From positions 1 to 44,807 of the forward strand of contig JAUXWQ010000015.1 in the NCBI GenBank assembly GCA_030680235.1: a stretch of 44,807 nucleotides of DNA, read 5' to 3'. Shown one piece after another: positions 4,778-30,134 of the stretch. Numbering within the stretch: position 1 is the first letter of the stretch; the number at the start of each line of letters is the position of its first letter. The notes under the pieces were generated by a model that saw only the letters and a list, made by a program, of their open reading frames with translations, was not told the origin of the DNA and ran no database searches. Both the position numbers and the translations under genes were made by a program. Source of the DNA: Coxiellaceae bacterium. Its GTDB lineage: Bacteria > Pseudomonadota > Gammaproteobacteria > Coxiellales > Coxiellaceae.

Positions 4778-5494
4778 TCAAATAGTAAATTTATACCCAA
4801 CAAAAGCCGTGTACAAATTCACATCCGGTGCAGCATCGGGCGCACCATAAATCGCATTTCCATTATTCGCCTCAGAATCGCCCGGAATGTAAGTATACTG
4901 AAAACCGAAGATCCAAGCGCTCAGCGTATAATCAACACCCGCTGCAAAAACAGGCGCCCAATAATGACCCGCTCCTGCGAAAGCGGATAACGCAGTGTTG
5001 ATATCACTGTAAGTCATACGACGATATCCCGCACCAATCTTGCCATACAAGTCAACATGCTCCATAACAGGTATTGATAATTTTCCTGCTAAATACAGCA
5101 TCCACGAGCTAACATCCGCCGTTGCAGAAGCAGGTATAGTGACACCACCAATTGAATTACCAGTTCCTTCCACATTAACCGTTGGCAAATAAAACCAACC
5201 TGCTTCAAATGCGATATTTTTAGTTAGGGTATAACCAAAATCTAACCCGCCCGCAAAAGCACCATTGCCATTTGACGTTGGCGTATAATTTGACGCACCA
5301 GACTGACCAATCAATCCATTCGCATTGAAACCTGACCAATTCGATTGACCATAGCCTAGATGCGCATCAAGATAAAGACTCTGTTGAAATCCCGGCGCCG
5401 TAAGCATAAGACGATCAGGGCCACCAGCCATTGCAACAGTTGCGCCCACTACTGTAACACCTACCGCTAATACCAATATTTTTTTTACCAGCAT
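4778..5494 (-). CDS. Outer-membrane beta-barrel protein (OMP_b-brl type), paralogue 1
   Basis: A 238-residue protein with a Sec signal peptide: MLVKK, then a hydrophobic stretch ending in AMA, cleavage before GGPD. The mature part alternates hydrophobic and polar residues with many Tyr, Gly and Trp, and ends in YTAFVGYKFTI, as expected for a small OmpA-like eight-stranded barrel. The second gene shares the segments LGYxxxN, GGxDxGYT, EAGWxYLP, SWxLYxAxK and GxGYRxM. A Shine-Dalgarno AGAGGAAG precedes the ATG. Only 30 nt separate it from the terminator at 5525-5552, so it probably depends partly on read-through from the gene at 5588-6220. Ligand or adhesion role unknown. Confidence 0.85.
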   Translation of the reverse strand: MLVKKILVLAVGVTVVGATVAMAGGPDRLMLTAPGFQQSLYLDAHLGYGQSNWSGFNANGLIGQSGASNYTPTSNGNGAFAGGLDFGYTLTKNIAFEAGWFYLPTVNVEGTGNSIGGVTIPASATADVSSWMLYLAGKLSIPVMEHVDLYGKIGAGYRRMTYSDINTALSAFAGAGHYWAPVFAAGVDYTLSAWIFGFQYTYIPGDSEANNGNAIYGAPDAAPDVNLYTAFVGYKFTI

Positions 5495-5524
5495 TTTATC
5501 AACTTCCTCTAAAACCTTTACTAT

Positions 5525-5552
5525 AAAAAAAGGGGCCGAAGCCCCTTTTTTT
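5525..5552 (-). terminator. Intrinsic terminator after the second barrel gene
   Basis: A GGGGC / GCCCC stem with a four-base TTCG loop (minus-strand reading), flanked by A and T runs, so it can act in both directions. On the minus strand it follows the gene at 5588-6220 by about 35 nt and precedes the next paralogue by 30 nt, which is the position of an attenuator inside the cluster. A small GACGTGA / TCGCGTC inverted repeat lies beside it at about 5562-5579. Confidence 0.88.
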
Positions 5553-5587
5553 CACATAAGACGTGATAAATCGCGTCTCTACAATGA

Positions 5588-6220
5588 TTAAACGTTGAAT
5601 TTGTAACCAACGAAACCAGTATACATGTTCATTTTACCAGCATTGTCTTGCAATGTTGAGTTAGAGCTATTGCCAGTAATGAAAGTGTATTGAGCACCAA
5701 ACAACCAGCTGCCGTAAGTATATTCAATACCTGCAGCCATCAAAGGCAACCAGTAGTTACCGGATGAATTAGCACCGTTAAGGCTCCAATTCAAGTTACG
5801 ATAGCCAACACCCGCTTTCGCGAAAAGATCTAAGTTTTCCATTACTTCTGCAGAGAATTTCGCAGCTGCATAAAGGACCCATGATCTAACTTGACCAGTA
5901 ACCGTATTAGTTGGGTTTGCAAAGCCAGCATTTGGCAAGTACAACCAACCTGCTTCAAGAGCGATGTTACGGGTAAATGTGTAACCCATATCAACACCAC
6001 CAGCAAAGCCACCATTTTTATTATCAACAACGCTAACACCAGCAAGCGTATAATCAGCGGTGTTTGTTGATGCATAACCCAATTGCGCATCGATATAAAC
6101 GCTATTTTGGAATGCAGGTTGAGCAGGCATCGCCATATGATCAGGACCGCCAGCCATTGCAGCAGTTGCACCAATTACAGTTAAACCAGCAGCTAACACT
6201 AAAAGTTTTTTTACCGACAT
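5588..6220 (-). CDS. Outer-membrane beta-barrel protein (OMP_b-brl type), paralogue 2
   Basis: A 210-residue paralogue of the neighbouring gene. The signal peptide (MSVKK...GATAAMA, then GGPDHM) is almost the same as that of paralogue 1. The mature domain has the shared barrel segments AQLGYAST, GGVDMGYTF, EAGWLYLP, SWVLYAAAKF and GVGYRNL, and ends in YTGFVGYKFNV. A GAGGGA ribosome-binding site precedes the ATG. A strong terminator lies just downstream, so this is likely the most highly expressed member of the cluster. Its outer-membrane location is predicted from the signal peptide and strand pattern; its function is not. Confidence 0.85.
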   Translation of the reverse strand: MSVKKLLVLAAGLTVIGATAAMAGGPDHMAMPAQPAFQNSVYIDAQLGYASTNTADYTLAGVSVVDNKNGGFAGGVDMGYTFTRNIALEAGWLYLPNAGFANPTNTVTGQVRSWVLYAAAKFSAEVMENLDLFAKAGVGYRNLNWSLNGANSSGNYWLPLMAAGIEYTYGSWLFGAQYTFITGNSSNSTLQDNAGKMNMYTGFVGYKFNV

Positions 6221-6506
6221 TTTAAATTCCCTCTTTTTTTCGATCTAACAAAAATAGCGTCTTATTAAAAATCTTTTCTTATTCAGATCAGATTTTCAAA
6301 ATGACCCACTTTCCGCTTATATATATGCACTAAGCATATTGGGTCATACTACCCAAAAGGTTTTGAACAAACAAGCTTTTATTCCTTTTGGTACAGAAGG
6401 TTGATCACAAAATACGCAAAACAATTTTATTTGTTTTATTTTTTACCGAAGTTGAGTGAATCTTGTATATTTTCAAAAATTTCACGGTCGCTTGCGCGCT
6501 CGTTTC
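6221..6506. other. Intergenic region with inverted repeats, likely upstream control region of paralogue 2
   Basis: No gene is seen. An inverted repeat ATGACCCA (6301-6308) / TGGGTCAT (6340-6347) encloses an alternating TA-rich tract, and a second short pair TGGGT / ACCCA overlaps at 6340-6355. On the minus strand this lies about 80-130 nt before the start of paralogue 2, a plausible place for an operator, but no promoter boxes can be assigned with confidence. Confidence 0.4.
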
Positions 6507-7241
6507 TTACAGAAAAAATTTATATCCCATGCCCACAGTAAATACATCTGCTGATTCAACACCCATCTCACCAGAAGCAGGCGGTGTCGCTGAAGCATTA
6601 TAAGGGAATGCCGTACTCTCACCCATATAATGCGCATATTGAAATACAGCCATCCATACATCAGCAAATGTATAACTAAACCCTGTCGCAAACAGTGGAC
6701 GAACAAAATTTGATGATCCGTTTGTAATAGGTAATGCGCTAGTGCCAGAAACAATTGCAGTCGTTGACACTTGTGCACGTCGATAAGCAGCACCAAACTT
6801 GAAAAACCAATTTGTATTATTAACCCAAGGTAATTTCACCATGTATTTAGCTGCCAAATAAGCAACCCAACTGGTTAAGTCCACGGACGGCAATGCACTG
6901 CCAGAAGCATTAACCCCTGCGACATTAACAACAGGCAAATATAACCAACCAAGTTCAACAGCAATGTTGTGATTCAAGACATATCCTGCATCAATGCCAC
7001 CAGCAAAACCCCCTCTCACATTACCGCTGTTATTACTGGTAACGCCGGAGTGTGAACGCCAATTTACGTCCGAAGCATAATCTTGCATCCCATACCCAAC
7101 CTGACCTTCAAAGTAATAACCAATATTGGCAGGACGTGTGACGGGTTCGTGCGCATAAAGGCTGTCTGCAATTGCAAGCGATGATCCACCCATTGCTACA
7201 AAAATAGTCGCTCCGACAACAAGAATTTTCCGTAACGCCAT
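6507..7241 (-). CDS. Outer-membrane beta-barrel protein (OMP_b-brl type), paralogue 3
   Basis: A 244-residue protein and the most divergent of the three paralogues. The signal peptide is MALRK followed by a hydrophobic run to about residue 25 (SLAIADS). Shared barrel segments remain: GQVGYGMQ, GGIDAGYVLN, ELGWLYLPVVNV, SWVAYLAAKY and GAAYRRA, and it ends in VGMGYKFFL. A TGAGGTG ribosome-binding site precedes the ATG. The 286-nt gap to paralogue 2 suggests a separate transcript. The strongest link among the three is the EAGW/ELGW-YLP segment, which also fixes the alignment. Role unknown. Confidence 0.82.
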   Translation of the reverse strand: MALRKILVVGATIFVAMGGSSLAIADSLYAHEPVTRPANIGYYFEGQVGYGMQDYASDVNWRSHSGVTSNNSGNVRGGFAGGIDAGYVLNHNIAVELGWLYLPVVNVAGVNASGSALPSVDLTSWVAYLAAKYMVKLPWVNNTNWFFKFGAAYRRAQVSTTAIVSGTSALPITNGSSNFVRPLFATGFSYTFADVWMAVFQYAHYMGESTAFPYNASATPPASGEMGVESADVFTVGMGYKFFL

Positions 7242-19461: not shown

Positions 19462-21171
19462 TTAAACTGCCTTGTAGGGCAAATACTTTGGCTCCCACTT
19501 CTGCTCCGCCAAAATCTTCACAAAATCTGCATTTTTGTCAACCTGAGATAATCCTTGTTCGCGTGCTTTTTCTGCTACCGCCAAGGCAATGCTATCGGCA
19601 GCATCAGCAGCATTCGCAATATCCGGCAACAACGGCGCCATGGGATCTTTTCTGGCAGGCGACACCAAGCTTAAAGCTTCACACGCCGCAAAAATCATTT
19701 CATCAGACACACGCGTTGCTTTTGATGCAATCACACCGCGCCCAATGCCAGGGAATACAAAAGCATTATTGCTTTGTGATACCGGATATATTTTTCCTTT
19801 AAAGTTCACTGGGTCAAAAGGCGATCCCAAAGCCATTAGCACCTTTCCATCTGTCCAATGCATTAATTGTTCTGCCGTTGCCTCACAATGATCAGTAGGA
19901 TTTGATAATGGCAAAATAATAGGGCGTTCACAGTTTTCAGCCATTGATTTCACCACGGCTTCCGTAAAAGCGCCACGCACTGTAGAACAGCCTACCAAAA
20001 TAGTTGGCTTTACATTTCTCACAACATCTAACAATGAAATATGATCAACAGCATCACGATGCCATGACTTTACTTCTTCTGGATCACGCGCATAGGGTTC
20101 TTGGAAGAAAGCTAAATTATCCATGTTTTTTAACAGCAAACCTTGTCGATCCACCAACCAAAAATTTTTCCGTGCATCTGCTTCTGATAATCCACTGGCG
20201 ACCATTGCTTGATAAAATTGATCCGCAATACCACAGCCTGCTGTCCCCGCACCTAAAAAGACAACGCGCTGATCTTTAATGTTTTCTTTTTTTGCAACCA
20301 TGCCTGATAACACGCAAGCCAATGCGGTTGCCCCCGTTCCTTGCATATCATCATTAAATGTTGCCATCTCATCACGATAGCGCAATAAATTTTTACGTGC
20401 ATTATCACGACCAAAATCTTCCCAGTGTAAATACACATGTGGAAATTTTTTTTGAACCGCCTTCACAAATTTATCAATAAACACTTCATATTCTTTTCCT
20501 GTGACACGCGGATGTCGCCACCCTAAATATTCCGGATCTTTTAACAAGGCTTCATTATTTGTGCCAGTGTCCAATTGAATTGGTAATACACGATGCGGAT
20601 ATAATCCACTACATGCCGTATAAACCATTAACTTTCCAATACAAATATGCATACCGCCTATACCCCAATCCCCTATTCCTAACACACCTTCTCCATCGGT
20701 TACTAAAATTAAATCAACATCCTCATTCATCCGCTGGTCAAGAATATCTTCTACGCGATCAATATCAGGGTATGCAATAAATAATCCGCGAGAACGACGT
20801 AACTCAAGGCTAAAAGTTTCAACCGCTTCTGCAACAGTAGGCGTGTAAACAATGGGCAACATTTCTTTTAAATATTTTTGTAATACTGCATAAAATAAAG
20901 TTTCATTGTTATCATGCAATGAATTTAAATAAATATTTTTTTGAAGTGCTGATTCTTTTTCACAAAACTGTCGGTAGCAACGCGCTACTTGCTGATCTAA
21001 CGTTTCAACCAAATTAGGCAGTCTTCCATCTAATTTAAATGCAATGCGCTCTTCATTCGTAAATGCTGAGCCTTTATTTAGCTTGGGATCTCGTAATAAT
21101 TCATAAGACCGTTGTTGCACAGACATAAATGCATTTCCGTTTTCATCGAATTGTATTTCACATTTTTTCAT
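19462..21171 (-). CDS. maeA: NAD-dependent malic enzyme
   Basis: Oxidative decarboxylation of malate to pyruvate and CO2 with NAD. The 569-residue length matches E. coli MaeA/SfcA (565). Visible blocks are LPIVYTPTVAEA, RRSRGLFIAYPD, VTDGEGVLGIGDWGIGGM, IQLDTGTNNE, HWEDFGRDNARKNL with the catalytic Lys, FNDDMQGTGA, and the dinucleotide fold VFLGAGTAGCGIA. It starts MKKCEIQFDE after a strong GAGGGA. It is the third gene of a tight operon with alsS and the unknown gene (12-nt gap), so malate-derived pyruvate and acetolactate formation appear co-regulated. Confidence 0.95.
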   Translation of the reverse strand: MKKCEIQFDENGNAFMSVQQRSYELLRDPKLNKGSAFTNEERIAFKLDGRLPNLVETLDQQVARCYRQFCEKESALQKNIYLNSLHDNNETLFYAVLQKYLKEMLPIVYTPTVAEAVETFSLELRRSRGLFIAYPDIDRVEDILDQRMNEDVDLILVTDGEGVLGIGDWGIGGMHICIGKLMVYTACSGLYPHRVLPIQLDTGTNNEALLKDPEYLGWRHPRVTGKEYEVFIDKFVKAVQKKFPHVYLHWEDFGRDNARKNLLRYRDEMATFNDDMQGTGATALACVLSGMVAKKENIKDQRVVFLGAGTAGCGIADQFYQAMVASGLSEADARKNFWLVDRQGLLLKNMDNLAFFQEPYARDPEEVKSWHRDAVDHISLLDVVRNVKPTILVGCSTVRGAFTEAVVKSMAENCERPIILPLSNPTDHCEATAEQLMHWTDGKVLMALGSPFDPVNFKGKIYPVSQSNNAFVFPGIGRGVIASKATRVSDEMIFAACEALSLVSPARKDPMAPLLPDIANAADAADSIALAVAEKAREQGLSQVDKNADFVKILAEQKWEPKYLPYKAV

Positions 21172-21183
21172 GACATTCCCTCA

Positions 21184-21987
21184 TTACATTTGTTCAATTC
21201 CACCAATGACAAAAACTTCACCCCAGATAATTTCATCAATTATCGATTTTTCCGTGTAAAGATGCACCGTATGCGTGACATCGCTTGGTGTTAATTCAGA
21301 AGGGTTAACTAACCTGCGATTAAGCACTAAACCATGCGTATGAATATTGAGTGCACTGCTGGTATCAAATGGATTATGATACAAGACCACTTTCAATTGC
21401 TCTGTGATTGATGCTGAATCACTCCCATAATTGGCCATTGCAACCACCAGGAAAAAATAACGGTCATTCAAAGACAATTTTAAATCCCCATAATAATCTG
21501 CCTTGTGATCAAAAATACTTTCATTATGAATAGGTGCTTTTTGTATGTGGGTTGCTTCTAGCGCCTTAAAATGCACGAGCGCAACCGCCAAACAAGGGCC
21601 GCCTGCTTTAGCATGAATTTGCTCACAAAAATCGTAATAGGCAATACCTTCCTCGTGTTTTTCAGGCTGAAAATGATAACTAGATTCAGCTGTTTTTGGC
21701 ACCAAAAAAATACCAGAGGTATAAAAAGTTTCACCTGAAATAGTTTGTAAATAATGATCGTTTTTATCAGTAGATGTTGTATAGCACATGCCATTAGCGA
21801 TGACAGATTCCCCCATGCTTTCTAACCTATGCGGAGATGCTAACTCAAATCCAAATTGATAATCTTTTGCATGCAATAATCGTGTTTTTAAGTCTGGTCG
21901 TACAACGCCTGCGATAACGTCTTCAACAGATCCAACAACACCTAATTGTGTATTTTTAACCTTTGTTTGATAAAAATGAATGGACAC
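21184..21987 (-). CDS. Uncharacterised protein between alsS and maeA
   Basis: A 267-residue soluble protein, with no signal peptide or membrane segment, that I do not recognise. GTG start with AGGAG 8 nt upstream. It lies 11 nt after alsS and 12 nt before maeA, so it is co-transcribed with both. It is rich in His, Tyr and Asp; possible metal ligands include LNIHTHG and VTHTVHLYTE in the C-terminal third. Acetolactate decarboxylase usually accompanies alsS, but the AlsD zinc signature (HxHF...DR..GGH) is absent. A weak general resemblance to the N-terminal half of AlsD can be imagined (a GFELASPHRLESMGES-like strand pattern) but is not evidence by itself. An enzyme or accessory factor for acetolactate metabolism is an inference from context. 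Confidence 0.8.
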   Translation of the reverse strand: MSIHFYQTKVKNTQLGVVGSVEDVIAGVVRPDLKTRLLHAKDYQFGFELASPHRLESMGESVIANGMCYTTSTDKNDHYLQTISGETFYTSGIFLVPKTAESSYHFQPEKHEEGIAYYDFCEQIHAKAGGPCLAVALVHFKALEATHIQKAPIHNESIFDHKADYYGDLKLSLNDRYFFLVVAMANYGSDSASITEQLKVVLYHNPFDTSSALNIHTHGLVLNRRLVNPSELTPSDVTHTVHLYTEKSIIDEIIWGEVFVIGGIEQM

Positions 21988-21998
21988 AAAATGTGCTC

Positions 21999-23630
21999 CT
22001 ATTTAAATAACGCAGGGTTGTCAGAATAATCAATGGGGATATCGATCAATACAGGCACGGGCTGCTGCAATGCTTCTTTTAATATCATTTTAAAATCAGA
22101 AGGATTCTTTAAAGAATACCCTCTTGCACCGAAGGCTTTTGCAAAATCTACTAGATCAACTGCACCAAAATCTACACCCGACTTTCGATTATACTTCATT
22201 AATTCCTGCTCTTTGACCATGTTGTAAGCACCATCCGTCCACACACAATGGACGAATCGATGCTTTTGTCGCACCGCATTTTCTAACTCCATAGCAGAAA
22301 ATAAAAAACCCCCATCACCAGATATTGAAACCACTTTTTTATGGGGGCATGCAAAGTTCACTGCCATTGCCCATGGTAATGCAACCCCCAAGGTTTGCTG
22401 CCCATTACTGAACAATAAATGGTGTGGTTCATACGATAAAAAATAGCGCGCCATCCACATATAAGACGTACCAATATCACAAACCACATAAGCATCATCA
22501 TCCAAGGTTTCTCGCAAATCATGAATAAAATGCAATGGATGCATTAAATGTCCCCTGGAGCTCGTCTGACTTTGAATAATTTTTTGATGTGCGTTATGAA
22601 ATGGTTTTACATTTTTTTTATTATTATCAACCATGCCTGACAATAACAATTTGTTGAGTGCTGCAACATTGACATCAATGTCACCCAATAATTCAAATAG
22701 TGGCTGATAACTTTCGTGAATTTTTGCGGGCACATAATCCAAATGCACAATGGATTTCTTACCCTTAACATTCCAAATTTCAGAATCATATTCCACACAA
22801 TTAAAACCAATCGTTAAAACAACATCTGCTTTATTCAATAACTGATCGCCAGGTTGATTGCGAAACAATCCAACACGCCCTGCAAAACAGTCCAATAAAT
22901 CACGTGGCACTACCCCGGCCGCTTGAAAAGTACTGACAACAGGCAACTGTGTTTTTGCCAATAGTTCTCGAATAATGCGTGTATTTTCAGGACGACTGCT
23001 TTCTTGTCCTAACACTAATACAGGAAATTTTGCTTGATTGATTACATTAGCAGCTGCAACAATTGTATGATGATGTGACGCACCATAACTGATTTTCGCA
23101 TGGGGTTTAATCACAGCATTATCAATTTTTTCAGATAAAATATCTTGCGGTAAACTGATAAAACATGCGCCTCGCAGCGGCGCTGTTGCCAATCGAAAGG
23201 CATTGGCAATCACTTCTGCCACAGTGCTGGCATCTGTCACTTCAACACTACTTTTTGTTACTGGTTTCATCAACGCCACATTGTCTGTGTTTTGATGCGA
23301 TGATTTTAACAGCATTTTTCTCGCAACGTTTCCTCCAAGAGCAACAACAGGATCACCTTCTGTGGTTGCTGTTAATAACCCTGTTGCCAAATTGGAAACT
23401 CCGGGGCCGGATGTCACTAAAACAACCCCTGGCTTTCCTGTAAGACGGCCATATGCCGCTGCAATAAATGCCGCATTTTGTTCATGTCGGCATAAAATGA
23501 GTTTTATTGTTGAATCTTGTAATGCGTCAAAAACGGCATCAATTTTTGCGCCAGGAATGCCGAAAACATACTCAACACCTTGCGCCTCTAAACATTTTAC
23601 TACCAATTGCGCAGCAGTTTGTTTCGACAT
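21999..23630 (-). CDS. alsS: Catabolic acetolactate synthase
   Basis: A ThDP-dependent enzyme condensing two pyruvates to 2-acetolactate and CO2, 543 residues. The N-terminal domain shows VFGIPGAKIDAVFDAL and the catalytic Glu in LCRHEQNAAFIA. The segment QNTDNVALMKPVTKSS is typical of catabolic AlsS/BudB rather than FAD-dependent IlvB. The C-terminal ThDP/Mg motif is GDGGFLFSAMELENA...DGAYN. GGAGA lies before the ATG. No small regulatory subunit (IlvH-like) gene follows, also consistent with AlsS. It leads the operon with the unknown gene and maeA. Confidence 0.93.
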   Translation of the reverse strand: MSKQTAAQLVVKCLEAQGVEYVFGIPGAKIDAVFDALQDSTIKLILCRHEQNAAFIAAAYGRLTGKPGVVLVTSGPGVSNLATGLLTATTEGDPVVALGGNVARKMLLKSSHQNTDNVALMKPVTKSSVEVTDASTVAEVIANAFRLATAPLRGACFISLPQDILSEKIDNAVIKPHAKISYGASHHHTIVAAANVINQAKFPVLVLGQESSRPENTRIIRELLAKTQLPVVSTFQAAGVVPRDLLDCFAGRVGLFRNQPGDQLLNKADVVLTIGFNCVEYDSEIWNVKGKKSIVHLDYVPAKIHESYQPLFELLGDIDVNVAALNKLLLSGMVDNNKKNVKPFHNAHQKIIQSQTSSRGHLMHPLHFIHDLRETLDDDAYVVCDIGTSYMWMARYFLSYEPHHLLFSNGQQTLGVALPWAMAVNFACPHKKVVSISGDGGFLFSAMELENAVRQKHRFVHCVWTDGAYNMVKEQELMKYNRKSGVDFGAVDLVDFAKAFGARGYSLKNPSDFKMILKEALQQPVPVLIDIPIDYSDNPALFK

Positions 23631-23651: not shown

Positions 23652-24017
23652 TCAGCCAGAAATATCAATGTTGCACTTGTCGAAAATCAGTATAGGACAA
23701 GAATGGCCAAGTGACAGAAATGTTGGCTGACCTTGTATTGGTCCATTTTTATTTTCAACAACATAAAGGCAACGTGAAAGCTCTTGCCCATCACTTCTTT
23801 TTAATTTAAGCAACAAATTGCCGGGGCGTGCAGGCAAACTACCTTGTTTTTTTGCCGACAAATGAATGACAGGAGAATCGTTTGGAATATCCCCATAGCT
23901 AAGACGATACCGATAACGTTCATCATGTGAATTATTGCTAAAAGTATACGTGCTACAAGTAAACGAAAAAGCGGAGAAAGATAACAAAAACAACAGACAA
24001 ATCAAAATACTTCTCAT
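23652..24017 (-). CDS. Small secreted cysteine-containing protein, function unknown
   Basis: A 121-residue protein with a clear Sec signal peptide: MRSILICLLFLLSFSAFSF, then FTCSTYTF. ATG at 24017 is preceded by GGAGG 8 nt upstream; the frame continues 12 codons further, but that adds a charged N-terminus without a ribosome-binding site. Four cysteines follow the signal peptide (TCST, RCLYV, SCPIL, KCNI), suggesting two disulfides in the periplasm or outside the cell. No lipobox and no membrane segment after the signal. I recognise no family. It lies 21 nt upstream of alsS on the same strand, so it could share that transcript, or the alsS promoter may lie within it. Confidence 0.72.
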   Translation of the reverse strand: MRSILICLLFLLSFSAFSFTCSTYTFSNNSHDERYRYRLSYGDIPNDSPVIHLSAKKQGSLPARPGNLLLKLKRSDGQELSRCLYVVENKNGPIQGQPTFLSLGHSCPILIFDKCNIDISG

Positions 24018-24073
24018 AAACTCAACCTCCAATCCTTGGTAGACGAGACTCACTGTTTCAGTATAGCATCGAT

Positions 24074-26340: not shown

Positions 26341-26398
26341 CTATTCACCACTCTGAATACGAATCTACCACGACCGCTCAGTTTTTAGGTGATTTTTT
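26341..26398 (+). repeat. 58-bp dispersed repeat, copy C
   Basis: CACTCTGAATACGAATCTAC, then CACGACCGCTCAG and TTTTTAGGTGATTTTTT, nearly the same as copy B. Its TTTTTT end touches the stop codon of the TIG-repeat gene (26397-26399). Confidence 0.8.
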
Positions 26399-29300
26399 AA
26401 CTAGGATCACTGACAGTGGCATGCACGCAGCGTCCATAGGCGGTAGGATCATTCCACTGAACTTGAAAAGTTGAAGAAGATGCCCCACTGTAGCTCCACG
26501 AATTTTCCGAAACTATATTCGAGCTAAAGTAAGTATTTGCAGTTAACGCCCACGGAGAAGGGAGACTGGCATTGTTGATCGCTAAAAATTCTCCGTATGC
26601 AGCAGAAGTAGCTGCCGGTGATGGGCCAATATCTACAATATGATAAGGGGGCACAAGCACAGAGCCTGGCGTAGTAACCCCTCTATCATCACAAATAGCA
26701 GCTAAGTTAACAAACCCTTGAGGCATATCAGCAGGTTCAATATCTTGGGTTGTTGCTTCCATTAAATTACAACTAGCATCCCAAACGAAGGGGTATTCGG
26801 TACCAGGTACTGAAGGCTCTGTTGCATTAGGCAATACTACTTTAGCAGTGATCTCTGTGTTAACGCCTGTTTGAGGCGTAGTAACAATAATGTTTCCTGT
26901 ATTTCCCGCTAATGCTGAGTTCGGCGTGATACGAACTAGACAGTATTGACCATAGGCAAGGCTTGCACCACGATTGCTGAGGTTGCCACAATAAACATCC
27001 GTTGATGTTGGACTTGTCGCCGTGCTGGTCACAGTGGCTCCTGTTAGCCCACCTGATACTGCCACATTCACAGGAACAGTAAAGGTAGTAAGTGCATTGT
27101 TTGTAATTTGCAATAACCCACCGTCATTAACAGTGTCTGTACACCCCTGAACCAAAGTCATGCCTACCGTTGTATCTGTCGGTATCGCTAATGGAACGAC
27201 GCTAATAGCTGAAGTGGGCACTGTAATAGTAGCCACGTTGCTACCACTGATTGAAACGATCGTTGTAGAGTCAATCGGCATAACCGTTTTAAATTCTTGT
27301 ACACAACTTGTATTAGGTGCCAAACTTGTACCACAAGTGGTTAAGAGATTATCACTAAGGGGAACTGTCGTTATCGAGTTTGGACTACCTACACTGGTCG
27401 TTACACTAAGACCAGAAACGGCTATGGGCGTCGTATTATTAATCGTTAGAACACCATAATAGTCTTGATCAGGTCCATCTACAGCTGCAGCTGCAGAAAA
27501 AGAGCGATTAACAATCATTAAGCTCGGCTCTGTTACTGTCAAAACAGGGTTAAAATCGACATGAATACTCTGATCCGTAAAGATGCCTGTCAATGTGCAG
27601 GTACTTGAACTCCCGCAGGACGGAAAAGCAACGCCATTCACCGTCCAAGCACCCACAACACCAGCGTCAGGATCTGCAGTGGGTGTTGCTGTAAATGTGA
27701 TAGAAGCGCCGCTTGCAACGGCTTGAGGCGTACTCGGCGAAATAGTACCTCCTGTTCCAGCGCTCGGCGTAACCGTGTAGCCCTGCGAATACGTAAACTG
27801 ATCTGCAGAACTGGTTGCTGACGTACCACCTGGAGTTGTTACGGTAACATCAACAGTTCCCACACTCCCTGATGGGCTAGTAATAGTAAGTTGTGTTGCA
27901 CTAACGACCACAAGACTGGTGCCAGCGCTTGCTCCAAAAGAGACCCCTGTTGCACCCGTAAAATTCGTGCCAGTGACAGTAACGCTTGTTCCACCCGGCG
28001 TTAGCCCTGAAGAAGGTGAAATACTTGTTACTGTCGGTAATGCGAAATAAGTAAACTGATCTGCAGAGCTCGTTGCCGATGTGCCTCCTGCTGTTGTGAC
28101 AGTGACATTCACAATGCCTGCACTGCCTGCCGGGCTTGTTACTGTAATTTGGGTTGCGCTATCGACCACAACGCTGGTGCCAACGCCCGCCCCAAAAGAA
28201 ACCGCTGTTGCACCCGTAAAATTCGTACCAGTAACAGTAACGCTTGTTCCACCCGCAGTGGGTCCTGCTGTTGGAGAAATGCCTGTGACTGTTGGCGCTG
28301 CGGTATACGTAAACTGATCTGCGGAGCCCGTTGCCGATGTGCCTCCCAGTGTTGTGACAGTAACATCCACCGCACCCGCACTACCTGCCGGGCTTGTTGC
28401 TGTAATTTGGGTTGCGCTATTCACCGTGTAAGTTGTTGCGTCTGTCGCAGCAAATTTCACGGCTGTTGCACCCGTAAAGTTCGTGCCGGTAATAACAACA
28501 CTGGTTCCACCCGCAGTGGGTCCTGCTGTTGGAGAAATACCCGTGACTGTTGGCACTGCGGTATACGTAAACTGATCTGCAGAGCTCGTTGCCGATGTGC
28601 CTCCTGCTGTTGTGACAGTGACATTCACAATACCTGCACTGCCTGCCGGGCTTGTTGCTGTAATTTGGGTTGCACTATTTACCGTGTAAGTTGTTGCGTC
28701 TGTCGAAGCAAATTTCACGGCTGTTGCACCCGTAAAGTTCGTACCGGTAATAACAACACTGGTTCCACCTGCAATGGGTCCTGTTGTTGGAGAAATACCC
28801 GTGACTGTTGGCGCTGCAGTATACGTAAACTGATCTGCGGAGCCCGTTGCCGATGTGCCTCCCCCCGTTGTGACAGTAACATCCACGACACCCGCACTAC
28901 CTGCCGGGCTTGTTGCTGTAATTTGGGTTGCGCTATTCACCGTGTAAGTTGTTGCGTCTGTCGAAGCAAATTTCACGGCTGTTGCACCCGTAAAGTTCGT
29001 GCCGGTAATAACAACACTGGTTCCACCCGCAGTAGGTCCTGCTGTTGGAGAAATACCGGTGACTGTTGGCACTCCCGTATTTGTCAACGCAAAATTCACT
29101 GAAGTAGCCGATGGCGCCGAGGCGGCGACATTATAAGGCCCTCCCGCAGCGGTATTGGCAGTAGCTGAGATACTCGCCAGCCCACTTGAGTCAGTGGTTA
29201 CCGGATTAGTACCCAGTGTGGCGCTCGCACCCGAACCTGGCGCAGTAAAAGTAACTACGACGCCAGACACCGGATTATTGTAAACATCTCTCGCTTCAGC

Positions 29301-30134
29301 AACTAAGGGTTGAAATGCTGTTCCAACCGCTGCACTTTGCGGACTACCACTACTAACCACAAGGTGCGTTACGCCACTCGCCGTATTTGTCAAACTAAAA
29401 CTAGCTGATGTTAATGCCCCTGGCGCTATCGCCGTGACCGTATAAGCACCCGCCACCGTATTCGCCGTCAGTAAAGGTGACGTTGCTTCACCGCTTGAAT
29501 TCGTTATCGCTGTATTGACCCCGCCCGCAAAAGTGCCACTTGCACCCGAACTTGGCACAGTGAATGTGACTGTTGCACCCACCACCGGTGCATTGGAACC
29601 ATCCACTACTTTGACTACTAATGGATTTGTAAATTGTGTTCCAACGACAGCCGTTTGCGCGCTGCCACTGATTACTGAAATTGACGTGCTCCCTGTGTGA
29701 ATAGCCACTGGCACACGGTTTGCCAAAACAGGAATAGAACAGAGCGCACCACTTGATTTACAAACCTGTGGCGCTAACGTCGTAGCACCTAGCGTCCCCT
29801 TTCCCGCGACGGTCGCGCTGAAGGTACACTGACTTCCGAATAAGGGTAGCGCTTGACCGCTACAGGTATCGTTGGTGACTCCCGCAGTGACCAAACTTGC
29901 ATTCATACCCAAACCTGGATTAATCGTAAGCAGATAAGCTGGCTCAGTGCTGTTATTCGTTACAGTATAATTGAGTGCCGTTGCTGCGCCAGATTCGTAA
30001 ACATCAAGCGTCGATGTACTCGCAGGAACAATGCTAAGCATCGGACTAAAATCTGCTGCGTAACCCACAGTAGATAATACCAATGAAAAAATAAGTGCGA
30101 TTACTGCAAAAATACGAATCATTATATTATGCAT
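26397..30134 (-). CDS. Large secreted Big_1 / IPT-TIG repeat protein
   Basis: 1245 residues with a signal peptide (hydrophobic residues about 5-27, VGYAAD). After a Cys-bearing N-terminal domain come two Big_1-like immunoglobulin domains (about 142-250 and 255-354; invasin family, VxDxxxNPVxGxxVTFT pattern). Five IPT/TIG repeats of about 86 residues follow (about 355-782; PTVTGISPTAGPTAGGTSV). Next is a Cys-containing bacterial repeat domain (YTVTPSAGTGGTISP), then a C-terminal region of about 370 residues. No LPXTG, lipobox or C-terminal barrel is seen, so release or attachment by other means is likely. It lies 17 nt after a beta-barrel gene, its likely envelope partner. Base composition is visibly richer in G+C than its neighbours. 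Surface adhesin is an inference. Confidence 0.88.
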   Translation of the reverse strand: MHNIMIRIFAVIALIFSLVLSTVGYAADFSPMLSIVPASTSTLDVYESGAATALNYTVTNNSTEPAYLLTINPGLGMNASLVTAGVTNDTCSGQALPLFGSQCTFSATVAGKGTLGATTLAPQVCKSSGALCSIPVLANRVPVAIHTGSTSISVISGSAQTAVVGTQFTNPLVVKVVDGSNAPVVGATVTFTVPSSGASGTFAGGVNTAITNSSGEATSPLLTANTVAGAYTVTAIAPGALTSASFSLTNTASGVTHLVVSSGSPQSAAVGTAFQPLVAEARDVYNNPVSGVVVTFTAPGSGASATLGTNPVTTDSSGLASISATANTAAGGPYNVAASAPSATSVNFALTNTGVPTVTGISPTAGPTAGGTSVVITGTNFTGATAVKFASTDATTYTVNSATQITATSPAGSAGVVDVTVTTGGGTSATGSADQFTYTAAPTVTGISPTTGPIAGGTSVVITGTNFTGATAVKFASTDATTYTVNSATQITATSPAGSAGIVNVTVTTAGGTSATSSADQFTYTAVPTVTGISPTAGPTAGGTSVVITGTNFTGATAVKFAATDATTYTVNSATQITATSPAGSAGAVDVTVTTLGGTSATGSADQFTYTAAPTVTGISPTAGPTAGGTSVTVTGTNFTGATAVSFGAGVGTSVVVDSATQITVTSPAGSAGIVNVTVTTAGGTSATSSADQFTYFALPTVTSISPSSGLTPGGTSVTVTGTNFTGATGVSFGASAGTSLVVVSATQLTITSPSGSVGTVDVTVTTPGGTSATSSADQFTYSQGYTVTPSAGTGGTISPSTPQAVASGASITFTATPTADPDAGVVGAWTVNGVAFPSCGSSSTCTLTGIFTDQSIHVDFNPVLTVTEPSLMIVNRSFSAAAAVDGPDQDYYGVLTINNTTPIAVSGLSVTTSVGSPNSITTVPLSDNLLTTCGTSLAPNTSCVQEFKTVMPIDSTTIVSISGSNVATITVPTSAISVVPLAIPTDTTVGMTLVQGCTDTVNDGGLLQITNNALTTFTVPVNVAVSGGLTGATVTSTATSPTSTDVYCGNLSNRGASLAYGQYCLVRITPNSALAGNTGNIIVTTPQTGVNTEITAKVVLPNATEPSVPGTEYPFVWDASCNLMEATTQDIEPADMPQGFVNLAAICDDRGVTTPGSVLVPPYHIVDIGPSPAATSAAYGEFLAINNASLPSPWALTANTYFSSNIVSENSWSYSGASSSTFQVQWNDPTAYGRCVHATVSDPS
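27786..29073 (-). repeat. Five tandem ~258-bp repeats encoding the IPT/TIG domains
   Basis: The phrase ACGTAAACTGATCTGC recurs at intervals of 255-263 bp (near 27790, 28050, 28305, 28563 and 28821), marking five direct repeats in frame. The three at the N-terminal side of the protein (28304-29073) are nearly the same in DNA, while the two others differ at the VKFASTDATTY position (VSFGAGVGTSV type). This indicates recent duplication and potential for copy-number change. Confidence 0.88.

What the first reader, a model, noticed from the sequence alone, without database searches (positions are those of the whole stretch)
19462..23630. alsS - unknown gene - maeA operon: candidate new step in acetolactate metabolism
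Gaps of 11 and 12 nt tie together acetolactate synthase, an unrecognised 267-residue soluble protein and NAD-malic enzyme. Malate to pyruvate to acetolactate consumes organic acid and, with a decarboxylase, would give neutral acetoin, a known way to resist acid. AlsD is the expected partner, yet its zinc motif is absent; the middle protein has His-rich stretches and may be a divergent or non-homologous decarboxylase or an unrelated modifier.
Basis: partly seen in the sequence, partly recalled or inferred. Interest (0 to 1): 0.68.

Follow-up and report, generated by a model that had tools for sequence, protein, structure and literature searches.

The report
Hidden acetolactate decarboxylase beside alsS
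The unknown gene between the acetolactate synthase and malic enzyme genes most likely encodes a strongly diverged acetolactate decarboxylase, the ordinary next enzyme of acetoin formation, which sequence databases fail to recognise but predicted structure, conserved metal-binding residues and gene neighbourhood reveal.

Summary
alsS (21999-23630), a 267-aa unknown gene X (21184-21987) and maeA (19462-21171) lie on the minus strand with gaps of 11 and 12 nt. X matches nothing significant in Pfam, NCBIfam or PDB sequences. Its AlphaFold2 model, and that of a distant relative, match solved acetolactate decarboxylases best in the PDB search (Z 17.5-19.4, 200-205 residues aligned, rmsd 2.5-3.0). 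The next entry, PTD012, scores Z 12.6-13.0. Nine family members share invariant Glu60, an HxH pair (216/218) and His242, the order in which AlsD holds its glutamate and zinc histidines, so "zinc motif absent" is wrong in substance. The canonical active-site Arg, the GGH signature and the C-terminal tail are missing. X sits beside alsS in 8 of 11 genomes found to carry it (Coxiellaceae, Legionella londiniensis, Francisella, a Riflebacteria MAG). The genome shows no PF03306 alsD and no ketol-acid reductoisomerase, so acetolactate has no recognised route to valine. Best reading: X decarboxylates acetolactate to acetoin, completing malate to pyruvate to acetolactate to acetoin. The step is known; the protein subfamily appears new. 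No activity was tested. Other alsS genes are followed by DoxX and CMD-family genes instead.

The parts
21999..23630 (-). alsS, catabolic acetolactate synthase, first gene
   Evidence: TIGR02418 737.7 bits, cut-off 551.1; PRK08617 785.2 bits, cut-off 510
21184..21987 (-). X, predicted divergent acetolactate decarboxylase, 267 aa
   Evidence: AF2 model to PDB acetolactate decarboxylases, best Foldseek E 2.5e-8, VIA Z 17.5-19.1; relative L081, Z 17.6-19.4
19462..21171 (-). maeA, malic enzyme (oxaloacetate-decarboxylating malate dehydrogenase); cofactor preference not tested
   Evidence: PRK13529 800.4 bits, cut-off 326
21996..22000 (-). AGGAG, ribosome-binding-like site of X, overlapping the alsS stop codon
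   Evidence: sequence
21178..21182 (-). GAGGG, ribosome-binding-like site of maeA
   Evidence: sequence
21808..21810 (-). codon of Glu60, invariant, aligned with the Glu of the AlsD GE motif (Glu65 in 4bt2)
21538..21540 (-). codon of Lys150, the only invariant Lys or Arg; possible stand-in for AlsD Arg145 (inference)
21340..21342 (-). codon of His216, first His of HxH, presumed zinc ligand
   Evidence: invariant in 9 of 9
21334..21336 (-). codon of His218, second His of HxH, presumed zinc ligand
   Evidence: invariant in 9 of 9
21262..21264 (-). codon of His242, presumed third zinc ligand
   Evidence: invariant in 9 of 9

Best explanation
X is a zinc-dependent acetolactate decarboxylase of the AlsD/BudA fold, so diverged that family profiles miss it. 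Proposed pathway: MaeA turns malate into pyruvate, CO2 and reduced cofactor; AlsS joins two pyruvates to acetolactate and CO2; X binds acetolactate at a zinc held by His216, His218 and His242, uses Glu60 near the metal, and releases CO2 and neutral acetoin. Shown here: gene order, predicted fold, invariant residues, repeated linkage to alsS, and no PF03306 alsD or ketol-acid reductoisomerase found in this genome. Inferred: zinc binding, exact ligand positions, the reaction, a role for invariant Lys150 in place of AlsD Arg145, and the purpose (taking up protons and disposing of organic acid or excess pyruvate).
For: (1) Fold: the window model (best of five, pLDDT 82.6, pTM 0.85) and a model of a distant relative, L081 (pLDDT 89.7, five models 83.4-89.7), both have acetolactate decarboxylase chains (1xv2 titled 'similar to') as their top 14 Foldseek rows and top 9 VIA entries, Z 17.5-19.1 and 17.6-19.4, 200-205 aligned, rmsd 2.5-3.0. 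(2) Profile comparison puts GE60 of X on the GE of AlsD: hhalign E 3e-4 and 7.8e-5; the version with 12 AlsD rows scores 29.1, above 200 of 200 column-shuffled decoys (maximum 25.3; reversed 13.4). (3) Invariant E60, K150, H216, H218, H242 in 9 of 9; only 3 of the 16 His of X are invariant and they are these. (4) alsS beside X in 8 of 11 genomes with X; same-strand spacing outside the window from a 1-nt overlap to 23 nt. (5) PF03306 alsD lies beside alsS elsewhere in the family (G018: alsS, small membrane-like ORF, alsD) and class (G170, G391). (6) No PF03306 and no KARI found in the own genome (KARI rings in 14 of 14 control genomes). (7) In G325 X is split by a transposase-like ORF while a PF03306 alsD exists elsewhere, as expected if the two are redundant.
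Against: No activity data. PF03306 itself does not hit X. Of the five window models two were poor (pLDDT 65.7 and 46.2), and the two alignments used for folding share sequences. With four PDB ALDC sequences added, hhalign weakens to E 0.0026, probability 11%. The C-terminal halves do not align by sequence (E 0.45), and a forced global alignment sets His216 of the HxH pair on the third AlsD His rather than HxH on HxH. So equivalence of the three His to AlsD's ligands rests on order, invariance and alignment range, not on a superposition. AlsD Arg145 is not conserved (T, A or E in X), the GGH signature is missing, and X ends before the AlsD C-terminal tail. Three Francisella genomes hold X without a nearby alsS: G083 and G421 intact, G419 truncated. 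In the same genus G003 has alsS and maeA but neither X nor PF03306 alsD, so X is not indispensable to alsS.
Confidence: 0.82

Rival explanations
1. X keeps the AlsD fold and a metal site but acts on another substrate, for example another 2-hydroxy-3-oxo acid made by AlsS side reactions, or as an ester hydrolase like PTD012 (that activity is recalled).
For: Arg145, the GGH signature and the C-terminal tail of AlsD are not kept. PTD012 also matches, Z 12.6-13.0. X persists without nearby alsS in G083 and G421.
Against: ALDC matches are 4.6-6.5 Z units above PTD012. Linkage to alsS recurs in four lineages. The Francisella genomes with X but no alsS still hold an IlvB-like synthase at 30-31% identity, though that of G419 has an internal stop.
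Confidence: 0.12
2. X is a catalytically dead AlsD relative that regulates or scaffolds AlsS.
For: Same-strand gaps of 2-23 nt and a 1-nt overlap suggest matched expression. Several canonical AlsD features are lost.
Against: The invariant charged and His residues are those expected of a metal site; a dead protein would not be expected to keep E, HxH and H. No PF03306 decarboxylase was found in the genome.
Confidence: 0.04
3. X is unrelated to AlsD and shares only a common beta-sandwich arrangement.
For: No match to PF03306; C-terminal halves not alignable by sequence; global profile alignment poor (probability 2.5%).
Against: Models of two members give Z 17.5-19.4 over nearly the whole ALDC chain, far above the best Z of 7-8 that the tool calls typical for models without a clear Foldseek match; N-terminal profile alignment in register.
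Confidence: 0.02

Closest known systems
Alpha-acetolactate decarboxylase AlsD/BudA/AldC (PF03306; PDB 4bt2, 5xne, 6inb, 6j92, 5yho)
   Same: Predicted fold over 200-205 residues; conserved Glu and HxH...H in the same order; partner of alsS.
   Different: 10-17% identity; not detected by PF03306; 24 instead of 11 residues from second to third His; no GGH; Arg145 position is T/A/E with an invariant Lys four residues on; no C-terminal tail.
alsSD operon of Bacillus / budABC operon of enterobacteria
   Same: Acetolactate synthase with a decarboxylase (PMC10466699, passages seen).
   Different: Decarboxylase of another subfamily, and a malic enzyme gene where budABC has a butanediol dehydrogenase.
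PTD012 (human, PDB 1xcr), zinc-containing fold
   Same: Same fold class, Z 12.6-13.0.
   Different: Clearly weaker than ALDC; no link to acetolactate known to me (recalled).
PPC-type proteins (3hwu, 3htn, 2dt4, 2h6l; grouped as DUF296 from recall)
   Same: Half-size match, Z 6.9-10.7.
   Different: Chains of 139-144 residues with 116-125 aligned.

Membership tests
AlsD/BudA acetolactate decarboxylase (PF03306) | Match to the family profile | tested here: not met
   PF03306 not listed up to E 10 for X (filters drop most matches above about 0.1) and no match in the genome; L080 and L081 have no Pfam match at E 0.01
AlsD/BudA acetolactate decarboxylase (PF03306) | ALDC fold over the whole chain | tested here: met
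   predicted models: Z 17.5-19.4, 200-205 aligned, rmsd 2.5-3.0 for two members
AlsD/BudA acetolactate decarboxylase (PF03306) | HxH plus a third His conserved (zinc ligands H194, H196, H207 in 4bt2; role recalled, positions computed) | tested here: met
   H216, H218, H242 invariant in 9 of 9
AlsD/BudA acetolactate decarboxylase (PF03306) | Those histidines occupy the AlsD ligand positions | tested here: inconclusive
   Alignment ranges fit (X ends 25 residues after H242 at 4bt2 229, which is 22 after H207), but no residue-level superposition is returned, C-terminal halves do not align by sequence and a forced global profile alignment sets H216 on the third AlsD His
AlsD/BudA acetolactate decarboxylase (PF03306) | Glu65 near the metal (role recalled) | tested here: met
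   Glu60 invariant and aligned with it by hhalign
AlsD/BudA acetolactate decarboxylase (PF03306) | Arg145 in the active site (role recalled) | tested here: not met
   Aligned position is T146 in X, T/A/E in relatives; invariant Lys150 lies four residues on
AlsD/BudA acetolactate decarboxylase (PF03306) | GGH signature around the third His | tested here: not met
   No GG before the third His in 9 of 9 X; GGH invariant in 8 of 8 AlsD
AlsD/BudA acetolactate decarboxylase (PF03306) | C-terminal tail with a catalytic Glu (Glu253, recalled) | tested here: not met
   X aligns only up to 4bt2 residue 229, L081 up to 232, where the proteins end
AlsD/BudA acetolactate decarboxylase (PF03306) | Genetic partner of alsS | tested here: met
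   8 of 11 genomes with X
AlsD/BudA acetolactate decarboxylase (PF03306) | Decarboxylates acetolactate to acetoin | not testable with these tools
   needs an assay
PTD012 and PPC-type proteins | Fold match better than to ALDC | tested here: inconclusive
   Listed at Z 12.6-13.0 and 6.9-10.7, below ALDC
Malolactic enzyme (NF041582), for the third gene | Profile score over cut-off | tested here: not met
   630.2 bits against 850; it passes as malic enzyme

The most novel reading that the evidence does not exclude
Catabolic AlsS has at least three exchangeable partners for disposing of acetolactate: canonical AlsD, the hidden AlsD-fold subfamily X, and a DoxX plus carboxymuconolactone-decarboxylase-like (CMD) pair that replaces X between alsS and maeA in a species of the same genus. 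The CMD protein would be a third, unrelated acetolactate decarboxylase.
Probability: 0.13. Interest if true: 0.65.

Novelty: new variant of a known kind. Interest (0 to 1): 0.5.

Why it matters
It closes an apparent pathway hole: genomes of Coxiellaceae, Legionella and Francisella with alsS but no recognisable alsD may still make acetoin. It offers annotation pipelines a family that the Pfam and NCBIfam copies searched here do not hold, and a natural test of which AlsD active-site parts are dispensable, since Arg145, GGH and the tail are gone. Acetoin formation from malate would be a simple way to take up acid, which could suit bacteria living in acidic vacuoles (inference).

Tried and rejected
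Regulatory or scaffold role for X: not favoured because of its conserved metal-type residues. Biosynthetic role of alsS in valine synthesis: no KARI found. Plasmid or viral origin of X: no tblastn match in plasmids and none in viral contigs by pattern scan. X profile against PDB sequences: only two chance-level hits at E 1.5. Promoters and terminators: no more than in shuffles. G028 and G402 weak hits: judged chance from their ORFs. Distant match in G116 (E 5e-7): no HxH, membrane-anchor-like start, other neighbours; left out of the family. Single-protein scan of genome contigs: nothing; the alignment scan found five loci. Joining the C-terminal halves of X and AlsD by profile: failed.

Rows left out: A3 holds 8 of the 18 PF03306 match rows (L012, L023 and eight fragments left out; L015 clipped just after the third His). 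A5 holds 9 members; broken G325, truncated G419, and G116, G402, G028 left out. The C-terminal hhalign test dropped AlsD rows L015 and L016. The AlsS tree lacks L090 (G170), missed by a filter, and 6 of its 14 inner branches are unresolved.

Literature: nine searches. I saw listings with the starts of abstracts (in one search, 20 of 101 papers; one search found none), passages of PMC10466699 and one passage of PMC4990168. I saw no sign of this family in the listings. Absence from print is claimed only for those searches; most subscription papers are not held. The ALDC active-site roles (zinc ligands, Glu65, Arg145, Glu253) are recalled, not read here.
Full report
WHAT IS THERE. On the minus strand alsS (543 aa), X (267 aa) and maeA (569 aa) follow each other with gaps of 11 and 12 nt and ribosome-binding-like stretches. 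The outer two are secure: AlsS at 737.7 bits against a cut-off of 551.1, malic enzyme at 800.4 against 326. X has only chance-level matches in Pfam (lumazine-binding, E 0.16) and NCBIfam (riboflavin synthase, E 0.044 and 0.13) and none among PDB sequences. The genome (2.03 Mb, 97.7% complete) belongs to the same family as G011, which is a MAG named Coxiellaceae bacterium: G011 contig C25 has the length of WTGG01000011.1 and X at the same place.

RELATIVES. X relatives are rare. Genomes with a match: 3 of 93 relatives, counting the own genome; 5 of 369 in the class (one of these, G116, distant and left out); 8 of 30 in the family of G221 (one, G402, judged chance); 3 of 36 in the order (one, G028, judged chance); 1 of 398 in the phylum, the own genome. 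A pattern scan of one genome per species gave five loci; it added Legionella londiniensis and a Riflebacteria MAG and named Francisella sp. SYW-9 (contig length equal to G423's) and F. philomiragia ATCC 25015 (equal to G421's). That makes 11 genomes with X: the window, G011, L. londiniensis, the Riflebacteria MAG, and seven of the genus of G421 and G423, hence Francisella (G221, G424, G423, G325, G083, G421, G419). X is split by a transposase-like ORF (named by eye) in G325 and truncated in G419.

NEIGHBOURHOOD. alsS lies beside X in 8 of these 11: the window; G011 (opposite strand, 570 nt away, a small membrane-like ORF between); L. londiniensis (1-nt overlap); Riflebacteria (X first, 23 nt); G221 (3 nt); G424, G423 and G325 (2 nt each). 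It is not beside X in G083, G421 and G419. These hold, at E 1e-20 or better, only an IlvB-like synthase of 30-31% identity (with an internal stop in G419) and, in G421, a further 25% match. In the class sample 7 of 369 genomes have AlsS over the cut-off (at most three candidates scored per genome). Of these 7, four have a PF03306 alsD (G163, G170, G325, G391; in G163 on another contig than alsS), two have intact X without it (G000, G221), and one (G075) has neither. Overlap of X with AlsS in this sample is 3 of 4 X genomes, G116 left out (hypergeometric 1.7e-5), but three of the four belong to one genus, so the figure overstates independence. In the own genome no PF03306 and no ketol-acid reductoisomerase (found in 14 of 14 controls) was found, so acetolactate has no recognised way to valine and leucine.

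FOLD. AlphaFold2 gave a usable model for the window protein from four sequences (best pLDDT 82.6, pTM 0.85; the five models 82.6, 78.8, 76.9, 65.7 and 46.2) and a better one for the Riflebacteria member with nine sequences (89.7; five models 83.4-89.7). The two alignments share sequences, so the models are not fully independent. Searched against the PDB, both put acetolactate decarboxylase chains (1xv2 titled 'similar to') in the first 14 Foldseek rows (E 2.5e-8 to 2.4e-6; 3.5e-9 to 3.1e-7). VIA-align gave Z 17.5-19.1 and 17.6-19.4 for the nine ALDC entries, with 200-205 residues aligned of chains of 209-238, rmsd 2.5-3.0. Next came PTD012 (12.6 and 13.0), then PPC-type and related small proteins (6.7 to 10.7).

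SEQUENCE. Profile comparison of X with AlsD is weak but in register in the N-terminal half: E 3e-4 and probability 40% with four X rows, 7.8e-5 and 61.5% with nine. With four PDB sequences added to AlsD it falls to E 0.0026 and 11%, its score still above 200 of 200 column-shuffled decoys. These alignments set GE60 on the GE of AlsD (Glu65 in 4bt2) and F140 on the Phe six residues before the AlsD Arg (Arg145 in 4bt2). The C-terminal halves do not align by sequence (E 0.45), and a forced global alignment (probability 2.5%) sets His216 on the third AlsD His instead of HxH on HxH. Nine members share 35 invariant positions; among His, Glu, Asp, Lys, Arg and Cys only E60, K150, H216, H218 and H242. 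That is the order Glu, basic, HxH, His of AlsD, with the third His 24 rather than 11 residues after the second. The endpoint of the structural alignment fits H242 with AlsD H207: 25 residues from H242 to the end of X, 22 from H207 to 4bt2 residue 229. This is a consistency check, not a superposition.

MECHANISM. Best-supported: X is a zinc enzyme that decarboxylates acetolactate to acetoin. Shown: anatomy, predicted fold, invariance, linkage, no recognised alternative found. Inferred: metal, substrate, product, the role of Lys150 (four residues from the Arg position, so possibly the same face of a strand), and physiology. MaeA, AlsS and X in line would turn malate into neutral acetoin, CO2 and reduced cofactor. 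The review PMC10466699 (passages) names prevention of intracellular acidification, NADH/NAD+ balance and carbon storage as main functions of acetoin and butanediol formation.

PARTNER EXCHANGE. The AlsS tree (17 rows, 6 of 14 inner branches unresolved) joins the window's AlsS with that of G003, same genus (77-78% identical; support 100/100). Yet G003 has alsS, CMD, DoxX, maeA (maeA by eye) with no X and no PF03306 alsD. It also joins the Riflebacteria AlsS (X partner) with G391's (alsD partner), support 95/99. This suggests that the partner of AlsS has changed more than once. DoxX-like and CMD-family genes follow alsS also in G075 and G163 and flank X in G011; the G163 pair and the DoxX-like ORF of G011 were identified by eye, the latter having no Pfam match. 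Whether CMD replaces the decarboxylase is open: G163 also has alsD elsewhere and G011 has X too, so the distribution is not strictly complementary.

KNOWN OR NEW. The reaction and pathway are known. X works like AlsD on this evidence, but it is not filed as a PF03306 member: the profile, Arg145, GGH and tail tests were not met. It is best called a new subfamily of the ALDC fold. Interest is moderate: it resolves a pathway hole and is directly testable, but the fold and the partner make the function expected once seen.

Noticed in passing
L060 3446-4281 (G003), L061 6200-7047 (G075), L084 3302-4180 (G163), L028 2302-4106 (G011): A small membrane protein (DoxX or DoxX-like) and a carboxymuconolactone-decarboxylase-family protein recur next to alsS; in G003 they fill the slot between alsS and maeA that X fills in the window.
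   Followed up: partly
L031 8203-9870 (G325): X is split by a transposase-like ORF in a Francisella genome that also holds a PF03306 alsD elsewhere.
   Followed up: partly
L008 1246-2109 (G116): Distant relative of X (E 5e-7) with a membrane-anchor-like start and no HxH pair, between MltA-like and RNase D-like ORFs (named by eye); perhaps a non-enzymatic offshoot.
   Followed up: no
L017, L018, L019, L020, L024-L027 (G027, G010, G035, G033): Broken or fragmentary alsD remnants in one genus of the same family, suggesting loss of the acetoin route there.
   Followed up: no
L016 / L034 3707-4564 (G008): A diverged PF03306 alsD with no alsS among the ORFs seen on its 8-kb contig, followed by a short-chain-dehydrogenase-like ORF (by eye).
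   Followed up: no
window 26397-30134: 1245-aa exported-looking protein with five similar repeats of roughly 85 residues (IPT/TIG-like by eye).
   Followed up: no
window 4778-7241: Three successive ORFs with signal-peptide-like starts, two of them very alike, looking like paralogous outer-membrane proteins (by eye).
   Followed up: no
window 23652-24053: Small exported-looking ORF of 133 aa, 21 nt upstream of alsS on the same strand, without a Pfam or NCBIfam match.
   Followed up: no
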